DNA of 64,000 nucleotides. It comes from Sulfurisphaera ohwakuensis (GTDB lineage Archaea; Thermoproteota; Thermoprotei_A; Sulfolobales; Sulfolobaceae). Numbering within the stretch: the stretch's first letter is position 1; every line of letters begins with the position of its first letter. Below the pieces are notes generated by a model, which saw nothing but the letters and a program-made list of their open reading frames with translations, made no database searches and was not told the DNA's origin. Of the stretch, positions 45,157 through 57,711 are shown piece after piece. The stretch lies in the NCBI RefSeq assembly GCF_009729055.1, contig NZ_CP045484.1:682001-746000 (forward strand), read 5' to 3'. The position numbers were made by a program, and so were the translations under genes.

Positions 45157-46233
45157 ATGTTAATGAGATATTGGGGCAGAAAGCCCATAGAGCTTATTGA
45201 CGAATTACTTACAGAAGTTACAGATAGTACGGTTATTGATCCATTTGGTGGTGCTGGGTCAATTGTTTTGTCCGCTTTGCGTCACGGGAATAGGGCTATT
45301 TATTTAGATATTAATCCTTACGCTTGGTTAGTAGCGTTTGTTAATATAGTTAGTATTGATGCTGAAGAATTTAAGAGGAAAAGTGAGGAGGTTTTAAATA
45401 ATTTAGTTATTATAAGGAAGAGGACATTAAAGAGCGACTTTCTTTATTATTCTAATGGTAAACCTTTTTGGAAAAAGAGGAGTGTAGATAGGGTTTCTCA
45501 GTTCTTCACTACAGATAACTTCAGAAAATTATATTCTATCTTAAAGTCTATTGATAACGTAAATGCTTCCCCAGAAGTGAAGATAGCATTATATGGTGCT
45601 TTTTGTTCTTCTTTATTCAAAGCATCAAAGATGAAGAGAGAAAATGCAGGTAGTTGGGGAGTTCCTTCATACTGGATCCCAGAAAGTCATAAAGAGATAG
45701 ACGCAATAGAAGCTTTTAAATCAGAGGTTAAAAGGTTTTTCTCGTATTTCAAAAGTCATAAGGGATATAAAATTGGTGAAGAGGTAAAAATGCAGATAGG
45801 AAGCTCATTAAGCTTCAATTATAACAAAAACCATATTCTTTTTACAGACCCTCCTTTCTTTGATGAAGTACAGTATATGGAACTTTCGTTCTTTTATTGG
45901 GTATGGCTAAGAGAAAGCAAATTTAGAAATGTAGCGAGGTATTTTTTAGGAAAAAACATTACTTTTAGGATAAGTTATGAAATGATCGTAAATCCTAATA
46001 AAGGAATTAATTATGACAAATACCTAGAAATGTTAGACAAGTTTCTTTTAAGAACTAAGAGAATAAAAAGAAAGTATCTCCTCTTTCATTATGATAAAAA
46101 AGATTTTATGCGAAGGGTCATCTCATTAACGAGAGAGAGGTGGAAAGAAGTTAAGATAGAAAACTTTGAGATAGAGAATCAGAGGAATATAGGCCCCAGA
46201 GGCGGTAAGAAATACGTGTTAATTTATTCATAA
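45157..46233 (+). CDS. DNA adenine methyltransferase (358 aa)
   Basis: Class alpha-like N6-adenine methylase with MRYWGRKPIELIDELL, SAM motif I DPFGGAGSIVLSAL (about 28-41), LDINPYAW, and motif IV DPPFFDEVQYMELSFFYWVW (about 229-248). It is related to the DUF1156 type but lacks that N-terminal domain and the zinc knuckles. It is convergent with the DUF1998-PLD gene, overlapping its 3' end by 10 bp. Probable modification enzyme for the second half of the island. Confidence 0.82.
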   Translation: MLMRYWGRKPIELIDELLTEVTDSTVIDPFGGAGSIVLSALRHGNRAIYLDINPYAWLVAFVNIVSIDAEEFKRKSEEVLNNLVIIRKRTLKSDFLYYSNGKPFWKKRSVDRVSQFFTTDNFRKLYSILKSIDNVNASPEVKIALYGAFCSSLFKASKMKRENAGSWGVPSYWIPESHKEIDAIEAFKSEVKRFFSYFKSHKGYKIGEEVKMQIGSSLSFNYNKNHILFTDPPFFDEVQYMELSFFYWVWLRESKFRNVARYFLGKNITFRISYEMIVNPNKGINYDKYLEMLDKFLLRTKRIKRKYLLFHYDKKDFMRRVISLTRERWKEVKIENFEIENQRNIGPRGGKKYVLIYS

Positions 46234-48329
46234 AGTTTATAATTCTTAGTTATTTCGTTAAATTGTTCTAAATACTTGCCCACATCATAAGGATCTATAC
46301 TAACAGTAACTGTCTCCTTATTAAACTTTAATCCATTTTCGGTGAAATTCGCAGAGCCCGTTAGTGCTATTGAATCGTCTATTATCATCATTTTAGAATG
46401 TACAATTCCCTGCTCGGAGGTCGCAGGTATTTTTATTACATGAATACCGTTATTTTCAGCTACCTTAATTGCATTTTTATTCTTTTCATCATCTAAGCAT
46501 ACGATAGTTATCAGCAAGTCTTTCTCTTTCTTAGCCTTTATTAAAACGTCAATTATTTCCTTCCCTATCCATGGAGATATAAGTTTAATATCATTTTCGG
46601 CTAAGTTTACTAAATCAACAAAAATATGGTATAAGTTATTTGTAAATGGGAAGGACGTCCTACCAAGCCAATTATCATAGGTAGAGATAAACTGATTTAT
46701 AAGTTTCCTACTTATAAGGAATGGTTGATCGTAAGGCCCAAAAATACATCCCTTATCCATTCCTACACACATATTACATCCATCCCAACATAAGGGTAAT
46801 TCAGAGATCATATCCTTAAAAGCTTGCCTAGTATCGCTATCCATATTAACTTTTTGACTAAATCTTTTCCCTAAATAGTTTCTAATTACTAAATGATTTG
46901 GAAATGTTTTAGGAAACGGGCTATTGAGTTGCCATTCATTAAATATATTTAAGGTTGTTTGAATTATTTCCTTGTCCAATTTTTTACTAAAATTGTTAAT
47001 AACATTGCCCAAACCATTTAGTGCCTTATTGAGTTTTCCCTCATGAGCGTTATACACATTAGGTAAATTACTTAAAACGTTGGAAAGTTCCTTATCCCCT
47101 TTATTTATCATTATGCTCAATGTTTTTAAATATCCTAAACCCCCGTAGATGCTTTCAACAATATATACAGAGCTTGAAAGCTCTCCAAAGATTGGATGAG
47201 CAATATAATATGTGAAATTTCCAGAGGCATTTATGCTACTCATTGGCTCTAATATGTTAGTGATAATGACGTGAGCTAAAGTATGTAACAATACAAGACT
47301 TCCAAATAATGTCAGATTGTCCTCATTACAACTCTCTTCAGCTTCTCCGTTTACTACTTTGTCTATTAAATCTTCGAATCTTTTCATTGCAAGGAATCCT
47401 TTTTGGGATAAACTGTATTTTTTTAGTCCAATATCGTTCTTATCTCCAAAATATATTGACATTTTCATACATAACCAATCTTTTATTTCTTGATTATTAT
47501 TAATTAAAAACGAGATATAGTCATTTAATGACGAACTATTAAATTTGAATATTATGCCATGTAGATTATTTAATCTAAATCCTATACCATTTTCGTAAGA
47601 TACCCATAAGAAATCCTTATACATTAGGTCTGCAGCCTTGTCATAAAAGATTGTAGCATCAGAAAAGGCTTCCATCCTTAATTTTTCACTAAACTCTATT
47701 TTACCTAATATTCTATCAGCGTTTCCTATCTTAACCACTATCAGAGCTAATATCTTTTTATTTTTACTATTATCTTCCATTACATATCTCACGACATGTG
47801 GAAAGATAGTATATAATCTTTCATAAGGTATAGGTCCTTCGTAATACTTACACCCTTTACCATCTTTAGATTTTTCAAATAACTTACAATTACTTTTTAA
47901 TGGGCAATCCTTCTTCTCATGGAGTAAAATCATACCGTATTTACAGTGATATCCATTTCTTAATGATTTATAGCTGTATTCTAAGATTAGAGGAAAAGGT
48001 TTAGCAGCATCGTCTCTTTCGATTCTATAGTCTGGTTTAGCTAAAGATCTATGTTTATATTCTACGGAAAGATCTGAGTTTTCAGCGAAAATGAAAGAGT
48101 TTATTATATCTGGAAGAGTTACTTTAAAGTCTCTTTTATAATATGGTACATAAAACTCATCGTTAATACCAGCATTCCATTCTATATTAAGTTTATTATA
48201 GTATTCCAAGGGCACTAGTATTATTCCATATCCTTGTTTGCCAAAAAGTAATTTAAATGGAGTAAATGTATATAAAGACTGAATTCCGCTTCTTTTAGTA
48301 CCAGAATATTCTTCACTCATTTTCATCAC
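46224..48329 (-). CDS. DUF1998-PLD fusion (DrmB + DrmC in one chain)
   Basis: The first about 550 residues form a DUF1998 region: cysteine cluster CKYGMILLHEKKDCPLKSNC near 130-150, LLHTLAHVIITNIL near 350, VYIVESIYGGLGYL near 390, and CWDGCNMCVGMDKGC near 520. The last 120 residues form a phospholipase-D-like nuclease with one HKD motif, HSKMMIID, followed by TGSANFT. DISARM encodes these as separate proteins, DrmB and DrmC. It overlaps the helicase gene upstream by 17 bp. Confidence 0.82.
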   Translation of the reverse strand: MMKMSEEYSGTKRSGIQSLYTFTPFKLLFGKQGYGIILVPLEYYNKLNIEWNAGINDEFYVPYYKRDFKVTLPDIINSFIFAENSDLSVEYKHRSLAKPDYRIERDDAAKPFPLILEYSYKSLRNGYHCKYGMILLHEKKDCPLKSNCKLFEKSKDGKGCKYYEGPIPYERLYTIFPHVVRYVMEDNSKNKKILALIVVKIGNADRILGKIEFSEKLRMEAFSDATIFYDKAADLMYKDFLWVSYENGIGFRLNNLHGIIFKFNSSSLNDYISFLINNNQEIKDWLCMKMSIYFGDKNDIGLKKYSLSQKGFLAMKRFEDLIDKVVNGEAEESCNEDNLTLFGSLVLLHTLAHVIITNILEPMSSINASGNFTYYIAHPIFGELSSSVYIVESIYGGLGYLKTLSIMINKGDKELSNVLSNLPNVYNAHEGKLNKALNGLGNVINNFSKKLDKEIIQTTLNIFNEWQLNSPFPKTFPNHLVIRNYLGKRFSQKVNMDSDTRQAFKDMISELPLCWDGCNMCVGMDKGCIFGPYDQPFLISRKLINQFISTYDNWLGRTSFPFTNNLYHIFVDLVNLAENDIKLISPWIGKEIIDVLIKAKKEKDLLITIVCLDDEKNKNAIKVAENNGIHVIKIPATSEQGIVHSKMMIIDDSIALTGSANFTENGLKFNKETVTVSIDPYDVGKYLEQFNEITKNYKLYE

Positions 48330-51177
48330 CTTCTACATTTGCCGATTCAATTGAAGGTGAAGGTGGAGTCATTAGTAGATCCATAAATATATCGTTTGTG
48401 GATTTTTCTCTCATTATACTAAATATATCGTAAGATTTATCTACATATAAGTTTGACTTGTTGTTATAATATTTAAGATTACCAATACATTTTCTTGCAC
48501 TAATATCATTAATAATACTATTTATAATATTTGATAGATCTTCTATGTTTTTAATTATACTGTTAAATTTATTTATAATAGCATCAATATACTTTTTAGT
48601 ATGTTGATTTTTCATCATAGTCCTAATATCATACTTCTTCGTTAGTTTTTGTCTAGTTTTTTCAAGCAAGCTTTCGAGTGATTTTATCTCTGAAGACTTT
48701 GAATTTATCAAATATAATATCTCATTGATTATTTTAATATTGAGGGGTCCAGTCTCTAATATTTCCTTTAATTCCTTTAACTTACCGCTAATTTTATTTA
48801 ATATTCCCAATAACATTCTATTATCATACCCAATAATGTTTCCTATTTTATGCTCAAACAAATAATTTATTGTCTCATTAATATCAGCCTCTATTTCATT
48901 AAAAATTGTATTTAAACCGTTAGCGATTTCTCTGCAAAGCTCTTCTTCATCTTTATCCTCATTATTTATACTACGTTTAATTACGCTAAGTAAGTCCATT
49001 ATATCATCTTTAATTAAATTTAAATCAATACTTAACATTTCTTCCAATTCTGACTGGGAATTAGCTATGTTATTCTCTGCATCATCAATTAACTCTTCTA
49101 TGATGTTTTCACATTCTGCAAAGCTGCTTCCATCATCTACACATGTTTTTACTTTATTTATTGCTCTCTTTAGTAAGACATATGAAAAAATATACTGTAA
49201 TATTATCTGTGGATTATTTGAATCTAAAGTTTTCGATACAGAATTATAACTCATATTAATTAACGTACTTCTAAGCTCGTCGTTAAACATATATAGTGAA
49301 GCGTAAGGAGTAGATTGTAAAATTACAATTCCGGTAGCTATTCTATAAGTCTTATCGCTCCTACCAGCTCTTCCGACTCTCTGTATAAAACTTTCTCTCG
49401 ATAACGGTAATTTATGTTGAACTATTACTGCAATATCACCTATATCTATTCCTAGTTCTAATGTTGACGTAGAAAAAAGCATTAATTTCGAGGAATCATT
49501 TTTAAACTCTTCTTCAGTCTTTAGTCTCTGCTGTAAAGATAATACTGAATAGTGTTGATCTATTCCTTTTTCTAAGTCTGCAGCAAGTTTTTCTAAGTAT
49601 ACATCACTATTACAAGCATTACGATAACTAGATAAATATGGCCAGTAGTATTCATTATTAGTATATAAATCATTTGGACTATTGTAACAGATATGATCTC
49701 TTATTTCTCTTGCTTTTCTTTCTCCAAGTATCGTATTCTTAAAATATTTGTAAAAATTAGTAACACCTGCAATACTATCCGCAAATAGTATACCTTTAAA
49801 GTTGTATTCTTTCAGCCATGCCAAAACTGCTTCTGTAACATCTTCCGTTAATGTTTCGACTCCTTTTCCTATATTAGGAAGTAAAAACTCATACAATATT
49901 AAGCGCTGCTTGCTTATTTTAGATTGATTCTTATTGTAATAATCATTATATGTTAATATGTCAGCTGGAAGGCAATCAATATTATCACATACTAATTTAG
50001 AAATAAATTCTCTATAGTTAGGAATAGTGGCAGAAGAGAATATAATCTTCTCTAATCCAGTAGTTTTAGTAAGTTTCTTTAGAGCTAAGAGAAGCCTTAA
50101 AATAAACCTTAAATGAGAATATAATAAGCCATCATAAGCGTGGACTTCATCCAATACCATATATTTTATGTTCTTAAAGTTGTTTACAGTATTCATATTT
50201 AATAATCTCCTATATAAAATCCATAAATTAGTAATCAACACATTAGGTGGTGAGTTCTTTATGGATTTCTTTGTAGGAATTATAAAGTCATAAATCTTGC
50301 CACATTTGCTACATCTTATCCCATTTCGGGCGTATACTAAATCACCATTACACTTAGGATTAGGACATCTGAGTCCTCTATAACTTAGGCCGTCATTAAT
50401 TTCATTAGGAGTATCACCGTCCTCTAATGCTATTGTAATTTTTTTATTTTTATCAATTTTTGCTAACTCCTCATTAATTATATCAAGGTACCTAATAAAC
50501 TTCTCAATTTGATCTTTTGCTAGTGCCTTTCTTGGATACACAAATAGAACGTTTATAGGCTTCTCGTCCTTAAAGATAGATTCTAATAAATACACTAATG
50601 AAGGTATTACAAAAGCAATAGTTTTACCAGTAGCTGTAGGTGCTACTAAGGGTATATAGTTATACTCAGTATTAAGAATCTTATCAATAATGTATCCTTG
50701 AAAACTAGATAGTCCAGTTATTTTAAGCTCCTCTAGCAACTTTTTAATAATATCTATAATTAATTTCCTTTCTTTATCTGATAAATCATCATTAACTAAT
50801 TTATTATCTATAATATGAATTAGTTTATCTATAGTAAAAGCTCCAAAATCTGGGTATGGTTCTTTTTCTAACATAATATCAAATTCCAATGAATATGGTT
50901 CAGAAGATATGAATTGTCTAATGAATGCCACTTTAGCTAATAAATCCATGTGTGCTGTTCTATATTTATCATCATATTTAATAATCATCTTCCTATTAAG
51001 TAAAACTAGAAAAATATTATTTCCCTTATTGTATTTTTTTATAATATCGTTAATGTCATTCTTAGTAAGTAGTGCACTCTTAAAATCTTTATTCTGGCTC
51101 TTTCTAAACTTGTCTACTTCAATTTGCAATAAATCTTGGTAGAATGATATTATATCATCGTCATTTTTACTTGACAT
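48313..51177 (-). CDS. YprA/DrmA-like DEAD/DEAH-box helicase with Zn knuckles
   Basis: The superfamily 2 helicase (954 residues) has motif I APTATGKT (about 180), an internal Zn-ribbon of two CPNPKC/CSKC pairs (about 275-300), motif II DEVHAYDG (about 345), motif III SSATIP, motif V STSTLELGIDIGDIAVI and motif VI QRVGRAGRSDK. The C-terminal 300 residues are coiled, Asn/Ile-rich and unusual. YprA-type helicases paired with DUF1998 are the DrmA-DrmB core of DISARM. It overlaps its upstream gene by 11 bp. Confidence 0.85.
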   Translation of the reverse strand: MSSKNDDDIISFYQDLLQIEVDKFRKSQNKDFKSALLTKNDINDIIKKYNKGNNIFLVLLNRKMIIKYDDKYRTAHMDLLAKVAFIRQFISSEPYSLEFDIMLEKEPYPDFGAFTIDKLIHIIDNKLVNDDLSDKERKLIIDIIKKLLEELKITGLSSFQGYIIDKILNTEYNYIPLVAPTATGKTIAFVIPSLVYLLESIFKDEKPINVLFVYPRKALAKDQIEKFIRYLDIINEELAKIDKNKKITIALEDGDTPNEINDGLSYRGLRCPNPKCNGDLVYARNGIRCSKCGKIYDFIIPTKKSIKNSPPNVLITNLWILYRRLLNMNTVNNFKNIKYMVLDEVHAYDGLLYSHLRFILRLLLALKKLTKTTGLEKIIFSSATIPNYREFISKLVCDNIDCLPADILTYNDYYNKNQSKISKQRLILYEFLLPNIGKGVETLTEDVTEAVLAWLKEYNFKGILFADSIAGVTNFYKYFKNTILGERKAREIRDHICYNSPNDLYTNNEYYWPYLSSYRNACNSDVYLEKLAADLEKGIDQHYSVLSLQQRLKTEEEFKNDSSKLMLFSTSTLELGIDIGDIAVIVQHKLPLSRESFIQRVGRAGRSDKTYRIATGIVILQSTPYASLYMFNDELRSTLINMSYNSVSKTLDSNNPQIILQYIFSYVLLKRAINKVKTCVDDGSSFAECENIIEELIDDAENNIANSQSELEEMLSIDLNLIKDDIMDLLSVIKRSINNEDKDEEELCREIANGLNTIFNEIEADINETINYLFEHKIGNIIGYDNRMLLGILNKISGKLKELKEILETGPLNIKIINEILYLINSKSSEIKSLESLLEKTRQKLTKKYDIRTMMKNQHTKKYIDAIINKFNSIIKNIEDLSNIINSIINDISARKCIGNLKYYNNKSNLYVDKSYDIFSIMREKSTNDIFMDLLMTPPSPSIESANVEGDENE

Positions 51178-52441
51178 TATTTTTATTTAATAATACAGAA
51201 GTATAAATACTTTCAAACATCTTCTTTATATTAACTACATCAACGTAATCTAGCTTGCACTTTAGTTTCTTCTCCATTTCGCTACTTAAACTTAATATGT
51301 TTCTTTTTTCTTTTAAAGCCTTAAGAAATTCTTTTCTAGTAATAGAATCTTTAAAGATATTTATAATTTTCTCATATGTTTCTTTTTTCTTCTTATTTGT
51401 TAAAAATGAGATAGTTATTAAAGGATGAACAAAAATTATATCCCCCATGTTATCTATTATAAACATAGGGATTAAATTACCATTATTTCTAAATTCTAAA
51501 TTCTCGTCCTCGAATAACAAATGTGTTAAGTTATCTATGTTAATCTTTATTTTAAAATTTGAAGAGTACATAGCTAATTCAACTTTTTTAATAAATTCAG
51601 TAAATAATTGTTTAAACTCATCAAGATTTCCAAGATTAAGGAAATCTAGTTCATTAATACTTTTCCTTAGGTACATGGATCTTAATATGAGGAAAGCAAA
51701 TCTGGTCATTATATCTGTATCGTTAAAATGATTTTTAGTTAAATATGGTATAAATTCGATACTCTCTTTTTTATTGTTTTTTTCAATTTCTAAATCTTTA
51801 ATTATAAAATATGTCATATAATTATCATCTATCATATTTTTGGCTGCTTTAAGGCCAAAGTTTATATCTAAGTATTCTACACCGTTTTTAGAATTTTTAA
51901 CATAAGTATGATATATTTTGAATATATGTAAACTATCATTACCTACAATAACATATGTATTACCTAATAGTGGGTTACGCTCATTGTAAGGTGGACTTAT
52001 TGAAAAAGTCCAATATAACCCTAATGCTTTTCGAACATTTGGATCATCCAAATAAGTTGCTGGGTTCTGATATTCACATATACTCGAAGGATAACATGTT
52101 AATATAGAATCAAACTGTATAATAATATCTGTATAATTTTGAAAAAAATCCTTATACTTCCCCCAGTATTTTAAAGTAACTATTCTATCCAGAGCTGGTG
52201 AATAAATAGGTATGAATTGGACTGAATTTCTTAGATAATAACTATATTTACCTAGAAATACCCTTTTAATGTTTTTAGCCCCTATTATATTGCTTATATT
52301 GAAATAGTAAGCATAATTACCTGAATTAATAGAAGAGTCGGAAATAATATTAACAAACTCCTTGTAATAATCTATCATTCCTGCAGAGGCTAAAAGTTTC
52401 TGTACGTGTGACTCATGATTAGCTCCACTACCAGTTGTCAT
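51167..52441 (-). CDS. Hypothetical first gene of the helicase operon (424 aa)
   Basis: Not recognised. It is soluble, Asn/Ile/Lys-rich like the helicase downstream, and without clear catalytic motifs; N-terminal MTTGSGANHESHVQKLLASA may form a helix-capped lid. It overlaps the helicase by 11 bp, so it belongs to the system. It is a candidate accessory or sensor component. 52442-52786 upstream is AT-rich and feature-free. Confidence 0.55.
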   Translation of the reverse strand: MTTGSGANHESHVQKLLASAGMIDYYKEFVNIISDSSINSGNYAYYFNISNIIGAKNIKRVFLGKYSYYLRNSVQFIPIYSPALDRIVTLKYWGKYKDFFQNYTDIIIQFDSILTCYPSSICEYQNPATYLDDPNVRKALGLYWTFSISPPYNERNPLLGNTYVIVGNDSLHIFKIYHTYVKNSKNGVEYLDINFGLKAAKNMIDDNYMTYFIIKDLEIEKNNKKESIEFIPYLTKNHFNDTDIMTRFAFLILRSMYLRKSINELDFLNLGNLDEFKQLFTEFIKKVELAMYSSNFKIKINIDNLTHLLFEDENLEFRNNGNLIPMFIIDNMGDIIFVHPLITISFLTNKKKKETYEKIINIFKDSITRKEFLKALKEKRNILSLSSEMEKKLKCKLDYVDVVNIKKMFESIYTSVLLNKNNVK

Positions 52442-54525: not shown

Positions 54526-55137
54526 GTGATGATATTAGTAGTTACTTTAGGGTTTGATGAAAAATTCCAGATTAGGGCATTAATGAGGAGATTTAACAAT
54601 CTGGAAAAAGTTATCGTAGTAGGTTCTTTCAACGATGAAAGGGCTAAAAAGGCTTTAGAGTCTTTTGAGAACGTTATGAAGAGTGCTCAAGTTAACTATG
54701 AGCTTGTTGAAGTTGACCCTCACAATTTTTACGATACTATTATTACCATTACTAAGAAGATTATAAATAACAACAAGGGAAGGATGTTTGTATTAAATAT
54801 TAGTGGAGGAATGAGGATTTTGATCATAGAACTTCTCTTTGCTTTTATTTTTTCTGGTCTTGAGGCTGAAGTTGAAATTGAATCTGAAGATTTCAACACA
54901 GTAGTATCGTTCAGATTAAGTGATATGTATCCAGCTCATTTGACTCAAGATCACATTAGAATTTTAATGTCGATCAAACAAGGTTATACTAGCATTAATT
55001 CAATTCATAAACGCGTTGACATGTCTTTATCTACTACATGGAGAAGGTTAAAAGAACTGAGAGAGATGGGTTTGATAGATGAAGAGAATAGGTTAACTGT
55101 TAAGGGAGAACTAGTTATTAAAATGTTCAGCCCTTAA
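54526..55137 (+). CDS. csa3: Csa3-type CARF-wHTH transcriptional regulator
   Basis: The 203-residue protein has an N-terminal CARF domain (MILVVTLGFDEKFQIRALM; later NISGGMRILIIELLFAFI, the ligand-contact loop) and a C-terminal winged helix (SINSIHKRVDMSLSTTWRRL). Csa3 proteins bind cyclic oligoadenylate-type ligands and control CRISPR adaptation or Cas genes in Sulfolobales. No cas gene or repeat array lies in the window, so here it either acts at a distance or regulates neighbouring defence genes. Confidence 0.82.
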   Translation: MMILVVTLGFDEKFQIRALMRRFNNLEKVIVVGSFNDERAKKALESFENVMKSAQVNYELVEVDPHNFYDTIITITKKIINNNKGRMFVLNISGGMRILIIELLFAFIFSGLEAEVEIESEDFNTVVSFRLSDMYPAHLTQDHIRILMSIKQGYTSINSIHKRVDMSLSTTWRRLKELREMGLIDEENRLTVKGELVIKMFSP

Positions 55138-55517: not shown

Positions 55518-56072
55518 GTGTATAAACTTATAATAAACGATTGGAGTTTAGCACTCCACGATTTCACTAGTTACCTTTTGGAGGGTTTAGGAGATAATTT
55601 GAAAATGGTTATTGGATTAAGTGAAGATGCATCTGTATATGATAGTAATGTTTTGGTTGTAGTTAGAGAAGTGAATGATGAGGTTAGAAGGATTGTAGCT
55701 GAAGCTGCAATAAAAACAAATGAAAAACATAAATCCGTCATAAGTTATTATTTAACTGACGAGAAAGACGTCAAGGCAATAGAGGTTTTTAGTAGAGCGA
55801 GTATTGAGGAGGTTGATGATTGTGAAAAAGCATTTGAGGATTTTTACAAAGAGATTAGAAATTATGTTAGCGATGTAGTATTTTTGGGGAATAAGTATTT
55901 TTATGATAGTAATGTTTTGGTTGTAGTTAGAGAAGTGAATGATGAGGTTAGAAGGATTGTAGCTGAAGCTGCAATAAAAACAAATGAAAAACATAAGTGC
56001 ATAATAAGCTACTACTTAACGGATAATAAAGGGTTAGTTGATGAGTTTAGGCAAATGGGAAGTACTGTATAA
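55518..56072 (+). CDS. Degenerate MNT-like nucleotidyltransferase with internal duplication
   Basis: The start (LHDFTSYLLEGLGDNLKMVI) and the following YDSNVLVVVREVNDEVRRIV have the position and size of a minimal nucleotidyltransferase partnered with a HEPN gene, but the G-S and paired Asp residues are largely lost (G-L-S, D-S-N). The segment YDSNVLVVVREVNDEVRRIV and 12 further residues occur twice, from DNA repeats at 55638-55732 and 55902-55996. It overlaps the HEPN gene. Probably the antitoxin of the pair, structurally altered. Confidence 0.6.
   Translation: MYKLIINDWSLALHDFTSYLLEGLGDNLKMVIGLSEDASVYDSNVLVVVREVNDEVRRIVAEAAIKTNEKHKSVISYYLTDEKDVKAIEVFSRASIEEVDDCEKAFEDFYKEIRNYVSDVVFLGNKYFYDSNVLVVVREVNDEVRRIVAEAAIKTNEKHKCIISYYLTDNKGLVDEFRQMGSTV
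55638..55732 (+). repeat. 95-bp perfect direct repeat, copy 1
   Basis: Identical to 55902-55996 over all 95 bases, in the same reading frame; spacing 264 bp start to start. Flanks diverge immediately. Confidence 0.9.
55902..55996 (+). repeat. 95-bp perfect direct repeat, copy 2
   Basis: Second copy of 55638-55732. Perfect identity suggests recent duplication or gene conversion. Confidence 0.9.
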
Positions 56073-56250
56073 GGAGGCGTTAAAAGATATAGAAGTTGGG
56101 AATTATAATAAGGCAGCATCTGCTATATACTTTAGTATAAGAAAAGCAGTTGAAGAGGTCTTAATTAAGATGAAACTTAACATACCTAGAAGGGATGATA
56201 AACTTGCTAATGTATTAAAGCATTTAGGGTTTGATGAGGAAGCAGAATTA
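56041..56250 (+). pseudogene. HEPN-domain gene, 5' part (interrupted)
   Basis: The frame MSLGKWEVLYKEALKDIEVG, SAIYFSIRKAVEEVLIKMKL and HLGFDEEAEL is the N-terminal two-thirds of a HEPN protein paired with the nucleotidyltransferase at 55518. It is cut by the TnpB element; the remaining 40 codons are at 57589-57711. Joining EEAEL to MELYNLRKKADYSD keeps the frame. ATG 56041 is preferred over TTG 56038. Confidence 0.75.
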
Positions 56251-57588
56251 TAGAAATTGGGGTTCAAAGGGGACGGAAAACCTCGCCTCTCTGAGACTGG
56301 GATGAATAGTCCCCTTTGTAGAAACTTTTTTTAACTCACTCATAAACATTCTGTTAATGCCTAGCGTAGGGTTCCGCTTCCGTGCATATGCTAACGAGCA
56401 AACATTTAGGGCGTTAAAAGCCCAGTTGAAGTTAGCATGTGAGATATATAATACCCTACGCTGGGCAGATATCTATTTCTACCAGAGGGATGGAAAAGGT
56501 CTCACACAAACAGAGTTAAGACAGCTCGCTCTGGATCTGAGAAAACAAGATGAGGAGTACCAACAGCTATACTCCCAAGTAGTACAGCAAATCGCCGACC
56601 GTTATTACGAGGCTAGGGATAGATTCTTCAAAAGTCTAGCACGTTTCCCTAAGGAGAAGAAACCACATAAGTACTACTCCCTCGTTTACCCGCAAAGTGG
56701 ATGGAAGATAGTAGGAACAAGAGAAATAAGAACTAAGAGTAGGAGGAACAAGAAGAAGCTGGTACTTTTGAGGTTAGCAAACCTCGGTGTGTTCAAGGTG
56801 GTAGTGCATAGGGACTTCCCGCTAGATAAGGTTAAGAGGGTGGTAGTTAAGCTAACACGTTCAGAGCGAGTGTATATCTCCTTCATAGTTGAGTTTCCTC
56901 AACTGGAAAAAAACGAACAAAGTAGTAGCCATAGATGTTGGGATTGAGAAACTCCTAACTACGAGTGATGGGTACTATTTCCCCAACTTGAAACCATATG
57001 AGAAGGCGTTAGTAAAGTTAAGGAGACTCCACAAGGCTCTTTCAAGGAAGAAGTTTCTTTCAAAGAACTGGTTTAAGGTAAAAGTGAAGTTAGCTAGGGC
57101 TTATGAATACTTGAAGAACTTGAGGGAAGATCTTTACATGAAGTTGGGCAAGTGGTTCGCACAACATTATGATGTTGTAGTAATGGAGGACATAGATGTT
57201 AAACAGCTTGTTGACAAGTCGGAGAGGAAGTTGAGGATGAGGTTACATGATATAGCATTCCACGAATTTAAGGAGATGATAAGTTATCAACTTGAAAAGT
57301 ACGGTAAGAAGTTAGTCTTGGTAAACCCAGCGTGTACTTCAAAAACTTGTGCCAAATGTGGGTATGTGAAAAAGGATCTAAGTCTTTCTGATCGTATCTT
57401 CATTTGCCCTAAATGTGGTTGGGTTGGGGACCGTGACTATAATGCTTCTTTAAACATTCTAAGGAGATCGGGGTGGGAGCCATCCTTAGTGCCTGTGGAG
57501 CTCCGCCCTCTACCCATGGCGAAAAGTTATGGGCAAGGTGGGGCTATGAATCAGGAAGCCTAGCCCTTCAGGGCGAGGTAGCTCACTT
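56251..57588 (+). mobile_element. IS200/IS605-type TnpB-only element
   Basis: The left end has the family stem-loop (AAAGGGGAC/GTCCCCTTT, 56266-56317) with inner GCCTC/GAGAC. A tnpB gene follows, and the right end has the hairpin GCCC TTCA GGGC (57562-57573). No tnpA is present, so movement would need a transposase in trans. The insertion splits a HEPN gene without an obvious target duplication, as expected for this family. Confidence 0.8.
56357..57563 (+). pseudogene. tnpB: TnpB RNA-guided nuclease, one frameshift
   Basis: The N-terminal part ([20 protein letters not shown]) ends in the frame at 56947. The RuvC part continues in the +1 frame as [19 protein letters not shown] (first Asp), [12 protein letters not shown] (Glu), the C-x2-C zinc ribbon ([19 protein letters not shown]) and [10 protein letters not shown] (final Asp). 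The break is at the A7 run in GGAAAAAAAC near 56910; six A's would restore the frame. All catalytic residues are otherwise present, so loss is recent or slippage may rescue it. The omega RNA would overlap the 3' end and right end. Confidence 0.88.
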
Positions 57589-57711
57589 ATGGAACTATAT
57601 AATCTAAGAAAAAAGGCTGATTATTCAGATGAGAATATAGATAGGAATGAGATAACAAAAGCTATTGAAAAATATGAAAGAATTTTATCAGCAATTAATA
57701 AAGTTAAATAG
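57589..57711 (+). pseudogene. HEPN-domain gene, 3' part (interrupted)
   Basis: Forty codons, MELYNLRKKADYSDENIDRN and so on to NKVK and stop, match the last helix of HEPN proteins, where the L-R-K-x-A-D-Y motif is conserved. It continues the gene at 56041-56250 across the element. It lies in the position where the TnpB guide would be read. Confidence 0.75.

What the first reader, a model, noticed from the sequence alone, without database searches (positions are those of the whole stretch)
56041..57711. TnpB element inserted into a HEPN gene, with its guide position reading that gene
The HEPN frame rejoins cleanly across the element. In TnpB systems the guide is the sequence just beyond the right end, here the 3' part of the HEPN gene, so TnpB would target the intact allele and favour retention of the insertion.
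Basis: partly seen in the sequence, partly recalled or inferred. Interest (0 to 1): 0.6.

Follow-up and report, generated by a model that had tools for sequence, protein, structure and literature searches.

The report
Broken TnpB transposon inside HEPN gene

Summary
A 1335-bp IS200/IS605-family, tnpB-only (IS1341-type) element at 56252-57586 lies 3' of a TTAT motif inside a UPF0332-like HEPN gene. The uninterrupted ortholog in a sister species gives a unique junction (ELFME). All 27 copies in this genome follow TTAT; all that keep their right end close in CTCAC. The putative guide is 57587 onward, i.e. HEPN sequence.

The mechanism is only partly supported. This copy's tnpB is frameshifted in an A7 run (56907-56913) just before the first RuvC motif. 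The one sister copy of its subfamily carries the same lesion plus a 7-bp deletion, so the lineage apparently moved with a dead tnpB. The only Y1 transposase found in the genome is itself frameshifted before its catalytic tyrosine. The guide-RNA scaffold is well preserved (11 of 27 pairs covary) and 20 intact TnpBs (82-87% identical) exist elsewhere, so targeting in trans is possible but unproven. The sister species' intact allele lacks the TAM and has a seed mismatch, so it is not a predicted target. A guide taken from the right flank is generic to every TnpB copy, and the retention model dates from 2021. A known kind, with a decayed nuclease.

The parts
56248..56251 (+). TTAT target/TAM motif, last bases of the left HEPN piece
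   Evidence: 27 of 27 copies in the genome are preceded by TTAT; agrees with TTTAT reported for S. islandicus solo-tnpB elements (PMC10640517)
56252..57586 (+). IS200/IS605-family tnpB-only (IS1341-type) element, 1335 bp, no target duplication
   Evidence: Unique junction against the uninterrupted ortholog in G002; same ends in sister copies
56265..56318 (.). Left-end hairpin: CAAAGGGGAC (56265-56274) / GTCCCCTTTG (56309-56318)
   Evidence: Direct reading; kept in the other subfamily as CAAAGGGGGC/GCCCCCTTTG
56357..56947 (+). tnpB 5' ORF (196 aa), ends out of frame
   Evidence: NF040570 positions 2-192
56907..56913 (+). A7 run: +1 frameshift relative to the in-frame CCG GAG AAA ACG AAC of the nearest outside relative
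   Evidence: same lesion in sister copy L013
56889..57563 (+). tnpB 3' ORF (224 aa) with RuvC D-E-D motifs and CxxC zinc finger
   Evidence: PF01385, PF07282, NF040570 positions 194-389
57466..57586 (+). Predicted omega-RNA scaffold (three stems plus right-end hairpin 57558-57579)
   Evidence: 21-sequence alignment: 99.1% of cells paired, 11 of 27 pairs with two-sided changes, 0/500 shuffles reach it
57587..57606 (+). Predicted guide: first ~16-20 nt of the right flank, HEPN 3' part
   Evidence: Geometry of TnpB reRNA (PMC8612924); no other site with 2 or fewer mismatches in the genome
56041..56251 (+). HEPN gene, 5' piece
   Evidence: 94% identical to ortholog L056 over residues 1-72; PF05168 on the ortholog
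57587..57711 (+). HEPN gene, 3' piece, holding the conserved RKKADY segment
55518..56072 (+). Upstream gene overlapping the HEPN start, conserved next to HEPN in two sister species; internal 130-bp repeat

Best explanation
A tnpB-only IS200/IS605-family element, moved by a transposase (TnpA) acting in trans, inserted 3' of TTAT in a UPF0332-like HEPN gene after this lineage split from its sister species, and destroyed that gene (shown by sequence; the trans TnpA is inferred). Its tnpB carries a +1 frameshift just before the RuvC-containing half; the sister copy shares it, so the break most likely predates the last jump and this copy makes no full TnpB (sequence shown; loss of activity inferred). 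No intact Y1 transposase was found in the genome, so the insertion probably stays simply because it cannot leave, not because TnpB polices the site (inferred). The omega-RNA scaffold and guide remain intact in sequence; if transcribed, the RNA could be loaded by TnpB from about 20 intact sister elements and direct cutting of re-emerging or incoming intact HEPN alleles that carry TTAT (inferred, perhaps 25-30% likely).
For: Exact empty site in G002. TTAT before 27 of 27 copies. Frameshift: A7 here against in-frame relatives, shared by L013, which has unrelated flanks and whose locus is vacant in G002 with TTAT in place. L013 also has a 7-bp deletion. Only one Y1 TnpA in the genome, matching profile 2-99 of 121, with the catalytic-Tyr segment out of frame. 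Sister species lack the family, so all insertions are recent. 20 other copies keep a full 410-aa TnpB; protein identity to this copy is 87% (N part) and 82% (C part). Scaffold covariation.
Against: A frameshift in a homopolymer could be bypassed by slippage, or be a sequencing error. Between the two sister copies the coding differences outside the deletion are 4 replacement to 4 silent, too few to show relaxed selection. A diverged TnpA missed by the profile, or one on a virus or plasmid, could still mobilise the element. No RNA data for this genome.
Confidence: 0.75

Rival explanations
1. Guide-RNA satellite: the copy is dead for TnpB but its omega-RNA is loaded by TnpB from intact sister copies, and that complex cuts intact HEPN alleles, retaining the insertion.
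For: Scaffold kept with compensatory changes between the two subfamilies; 20 intact TnpBs at 82-87% identity; TTAT would sit next to the target in this lineage's empty allele; guide is unique in the genome, so no self-damage.
Against: No RNA evidence; S. islandicus tnpB-only elements show no sense-overlapping transcript (PMC11043419); little excision is expected without TnpA, so little to police; the known intact ortholog lacks the TAM (CTGT) and mismatches at guide position 2.
Confidence: 0.27
2. One reading: the A7 frameshift is bypassed (for example transcript slippage losing one A), giving active TnpB that targets the intact allele.
For: All three RuvC acidic residues and the zinc finger are present in the downstream ORF; A7 runs can promote slippage; the frame is restored by losing one A.
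Against: The sister copy has lost even this option through a 7-bp deletion; a canonical -1 shift on A_AAA_AAC runs into TAG within a few codons (sequence); the nearest relative has no such run; this copy also changed a conserved Tyr to Cys near the zinc finger.
Confidence: 0.08
3. Assembly error: the true run is A6 and TnpB is intact.
For: Homopolymers are the commonest error site.
Against: Same A7 in two copies at separate loci; L013 has a further 7-bp deletion unrelated to homopolymers; 20 of 25 other copies read open and the window's long intact genes contain six A/T runs of 7 or more.
Confidence: 0.09

Closest known systems
S. islandicus solo-tnpB (IS1341-type) elements (PMC10640517, PMC11043419)
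   Same: tnpB without tnpA; predicted TAM TTTAT (here TTAT, preceded by T in 15 of 27); many copies per genome
   Different: This copy's tnpB is frameshifted; whether they are the same lineage was not tested by a tree
SisTnpB1 / SisTnpB7 (IS605-type, S. islandicus; shown to be RNA-guided nucleases)
   Same: Right end closes in -TCAC and the guide follows it; structured right-end RNA
   Different: Those have tnpA and TAM TTTAA; the paper gives about 37% identity between IS605- and IS1341-type TnpBs
ISDra2 TnpB (Karvelis 2021, PMC8612924)
   Different: TAM TTGAT; intact TnpB and TnpA
TnpB of plasmid pNOB8, plasmid pHGQ25 and Acidianus two-tailed virus
   Same: Nearest named relatives of the C-terminal half, 72-78% aa identity; similar right ends
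   Different: Uninterrupted annotated genes on mobile replicons

Membership tests
IS200/IS605 family, IS1341 group | Insertion 3' of a fixed short motif without target duplication | tested here: met
   TTAT in 27/27 copies; empty site in G002
IS200/IS605 family, IS1341 group | Subterminal hairpins at both ends | tested here: met
   LE 56265-56318; RE helix 4 with 4 covarying pairs
IS200/IS605 family, IS1341 group | tnpB present, tnpA absent | tested here: met
   Only tnpB ORFs inside the element; one Y1_Tnp in the whole genome, elsewhere and frameshifted
Functional TnpB RNA-guided nuclease | Single open frame with N-terminal part, RuvC D-E-D and zinc finger | tested here: not met
   Split by +1 frameshift at 56907-56913
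Functional TnpB RNA-guided nuclease | Structured omega-RNA at the 3' end | tested here: met
   Covariation, 0/500 shuffles; no Rfam match
Functional TnpB RNA-guided nuclease | omega-RNA expressed and extending into the flank; TAM-dependent cleavage | not testable with these tools
   Needs RNA-seq and biochemistry
HEPN (PF05168, UPF0332 type) | HEPN profile match | tested here: met
   Ortholog L056 E=1.7e-8; weak match to AF0298, 2hsb, E=0.004
HEPN RNase toxin of a HEPN-MNT pair | R-x4-6-H catalytic motif | tested here: not met
   Conserved segment is RKKADY, with no His in either ortholog
HEPN RNase toxin of a HEPN-MNT pair | MNT nucleotidyltransferase partner | tested here: inconclusive
   Neighbour 55518-56072 matches no nucleotidyltransferase profile

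The most novel reading that the evidence does not exclude
The element is an omega-RNA satellite: dead for both tnpA and tnpB, yet able to jump and to target its own empty sites by borrowing both proteins from other elements in the same cell.
Probability: 0.2. Interest if true: 0.5.

Novelty: new member of a known kind. Interest (0 to 1): 0.3.

Why it matters
It shows that a TnpB element sitting in a gene does not mean the guide-directed retention model operates there: the copy can be a passenger whose nuclease was lost before it moved. If the scaffold is still used by sister TnpBs, it would be a natural case of trans guidance between diverged TnpB subfamilies, which is directly testable.

Tried and rejected
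TnpB protein scans of genome contigs and viral contigs found nothing confirmed. Rfam gave no match. The single-sequence RNA fold was not significant (z -1.58); the covariation test was used instead. A first pairwise alignment of the L013 empty site used the wrong coordinates and was misleading; the correct stretch shows TTAT followed by a 9-bp length difference. The suspicion that the 2.56-kb copies carried tnpA was rejected: the extra gene is a DDE transposase. A second intact HEPN allele in the genome was sought and not found.

Full report
What is there. The window lies at 682001-746000 of a single-contig 2,803,915-bp genome. At 56252-57586 a 1335-bp element interrupts a HEPN gene. In a same-genus genome (G002, 2,694,756 bp) the locus is uninterrupted at 92-93% identity, upstream gene and HEPN included. 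The ortholog reads GAA CTG TTC ATG GAA (ELFME). Here the six bases between GAA and ATG can be drawn as k from the left (TTATAG...) and 6-k from the right (...CTCACTT); only k=4, TTA TTT, gives Leu-Phe. The ends are therefore unique, there is no target duplication, and the rejoined frame is 112 aa. G003 holds a 52% identical intact HEPN with the same neighbour.

The family. A genome search finds 27 full-length copies. All follow TTAT; all that keep their right end close in CTCAC. 25 form one subfamily (98.4% mean identity); the window copy and L013 form a second, 98.65% alike and 83% from the first. The sister species G001-G003 lack the family at full length. In the family-level search 13 of 31 genomes, this one included, have matches, the best outside copy at 79%; further relatives lie on pNOB8, pHGQ25 and Acidianus two-tailed virus.

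The nuclease gene is broken. The window copy has ORFs of 196 and 224 aa that match the first and second halves of NF040570 guided_TnpB. The break is a run of seven A at 56907-56913; the nearest outside relative (L102) reads CCG GAG AAA ACG AAC in frame, so this is one extra A after a G-to-A change. L013 has the same A7 and a further 7-bp deletion. The flanks of the two copies are unrelated and both sites are vacant in G002, so two insertions share one lesion: the simplest reading is that the lineage moved after tnpB broke. By contrast 20 of the 25 other copies keep 410 aa.

The transposase. Only one Y1_Tnp match exists in the genome, at 646906-647199, matching profile positions 2-99 of 121. 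Its frame ends early, and the segment with the catalytic tyrosine (YLVSTAGNLSSETIKKYIEEQWMKED) lies in another frame. Its left flank does not resemble this family's left end (sequence). I infer that the family moved through a TnpA supplied in trans and since lost, or carried by a virus or plasmid.

The RNA. An alignment of 21 right ends (121 nt here, 57466-57586) supports four helices: 99.1% of cells paired, 11 of 27 pairs with two-sided changes, 31 such cells, none of 500 shuffles as high, and every slid control far lower. The window copy keeps all 27 pairs (read off the alignment). The last helix may also serve as the DNA hairpin recognised by TnpA, but the others lie in the 3' part of tnpB, where omega-RNA scaffolds lie. 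So the scaffold is likely real in this family; expression is unknown. Literature: S. islandicus solo-tnpB elements have TTTAT as predicted TAM (PMC10640517), but only its IS605-type tnpBs show the sense-overlapping transcript (PMC11043419).

The guide would be TTATGGAACTATATAATC. It has no second site with two or fewer mismatches in the genome. The inferred empty allele of this lineage would have TTAT next to it. The known intact allele in G002 has CTGT and a mismatch at guide position 2, so it is not a predicted target. Retention by cutting the donor joint was proposed by Karvelis et al. (PMC8612924) and is generic. In cis it is unlikely here because tnpB is broken; in trans it is open.

The host gene. 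The protein matches PF05168 and weakly the UPF0332 protein AF0298. It lacks the R-x4-6-H motif of active HEPN RNases (RKKADY instead), so calling it a toxin would go beyond the evidence.

Verdict. Observation confirmed; interpretation partly supported; a known kind of element, with the instructive twist that this copy is a nuclease-dead passenger.

Noticed in passing
L127-L136 (G000:C1, e.g. 2471081-2472300, 1021525-1022744, 2434087-2435299): A DDE insertion sequence (349-aa transposase, PF14210+PF01609) has ten near-identical copies; eight sit in the loops of terminal hairpins of TnpB-type elements or look-alikes (4 left ends at one position, 2 right ends, 1 left end of another family, 1 hairpin-like spacer). 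The IS seems to seek these hairpins; a similar interruption is seen in another genome (L117)..
   Followed up: partly
L134 (around G000:C1:2647767): One copy of that IS lies inside a CRISPR array (46 repeats of CTTTCAATTCCATTAAGGATTATC in the locus), within a spacer that itself resembles a TnpB right-end hairpin, so the cell may hold a spacer against a TnpB element..
   Followed up: partly
window 55638-55767 and 55902-56031: The gene upstream of HEPN contains a 130-bp internal repeat (91-92% identical). The two sister species have it too (88-90% within the gene) though one differs from this genome by 33-36% there, so the two repeats seem to be kept alike by gene conversion..
   Followed up: partly
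window 45157-52441: Helicase, PLD-like and methyltransferase genes with matches to DISARM (DrmA, DrmC) and Dpd profiles: a probable defence island..
   Followed up: no
window 54526-55137: CARF-wHTH regulator Csa3 just upstream of the gene pair with the interrupted HEPN gene..
   Followed up: no
G000:C1:646906-647199: The only Y1 TnpA of the genome is frameshifted before the catalytic tyrosine, yet 27 recent TnpB copies exist: the source of mobility is missing..
   Followed up: partly
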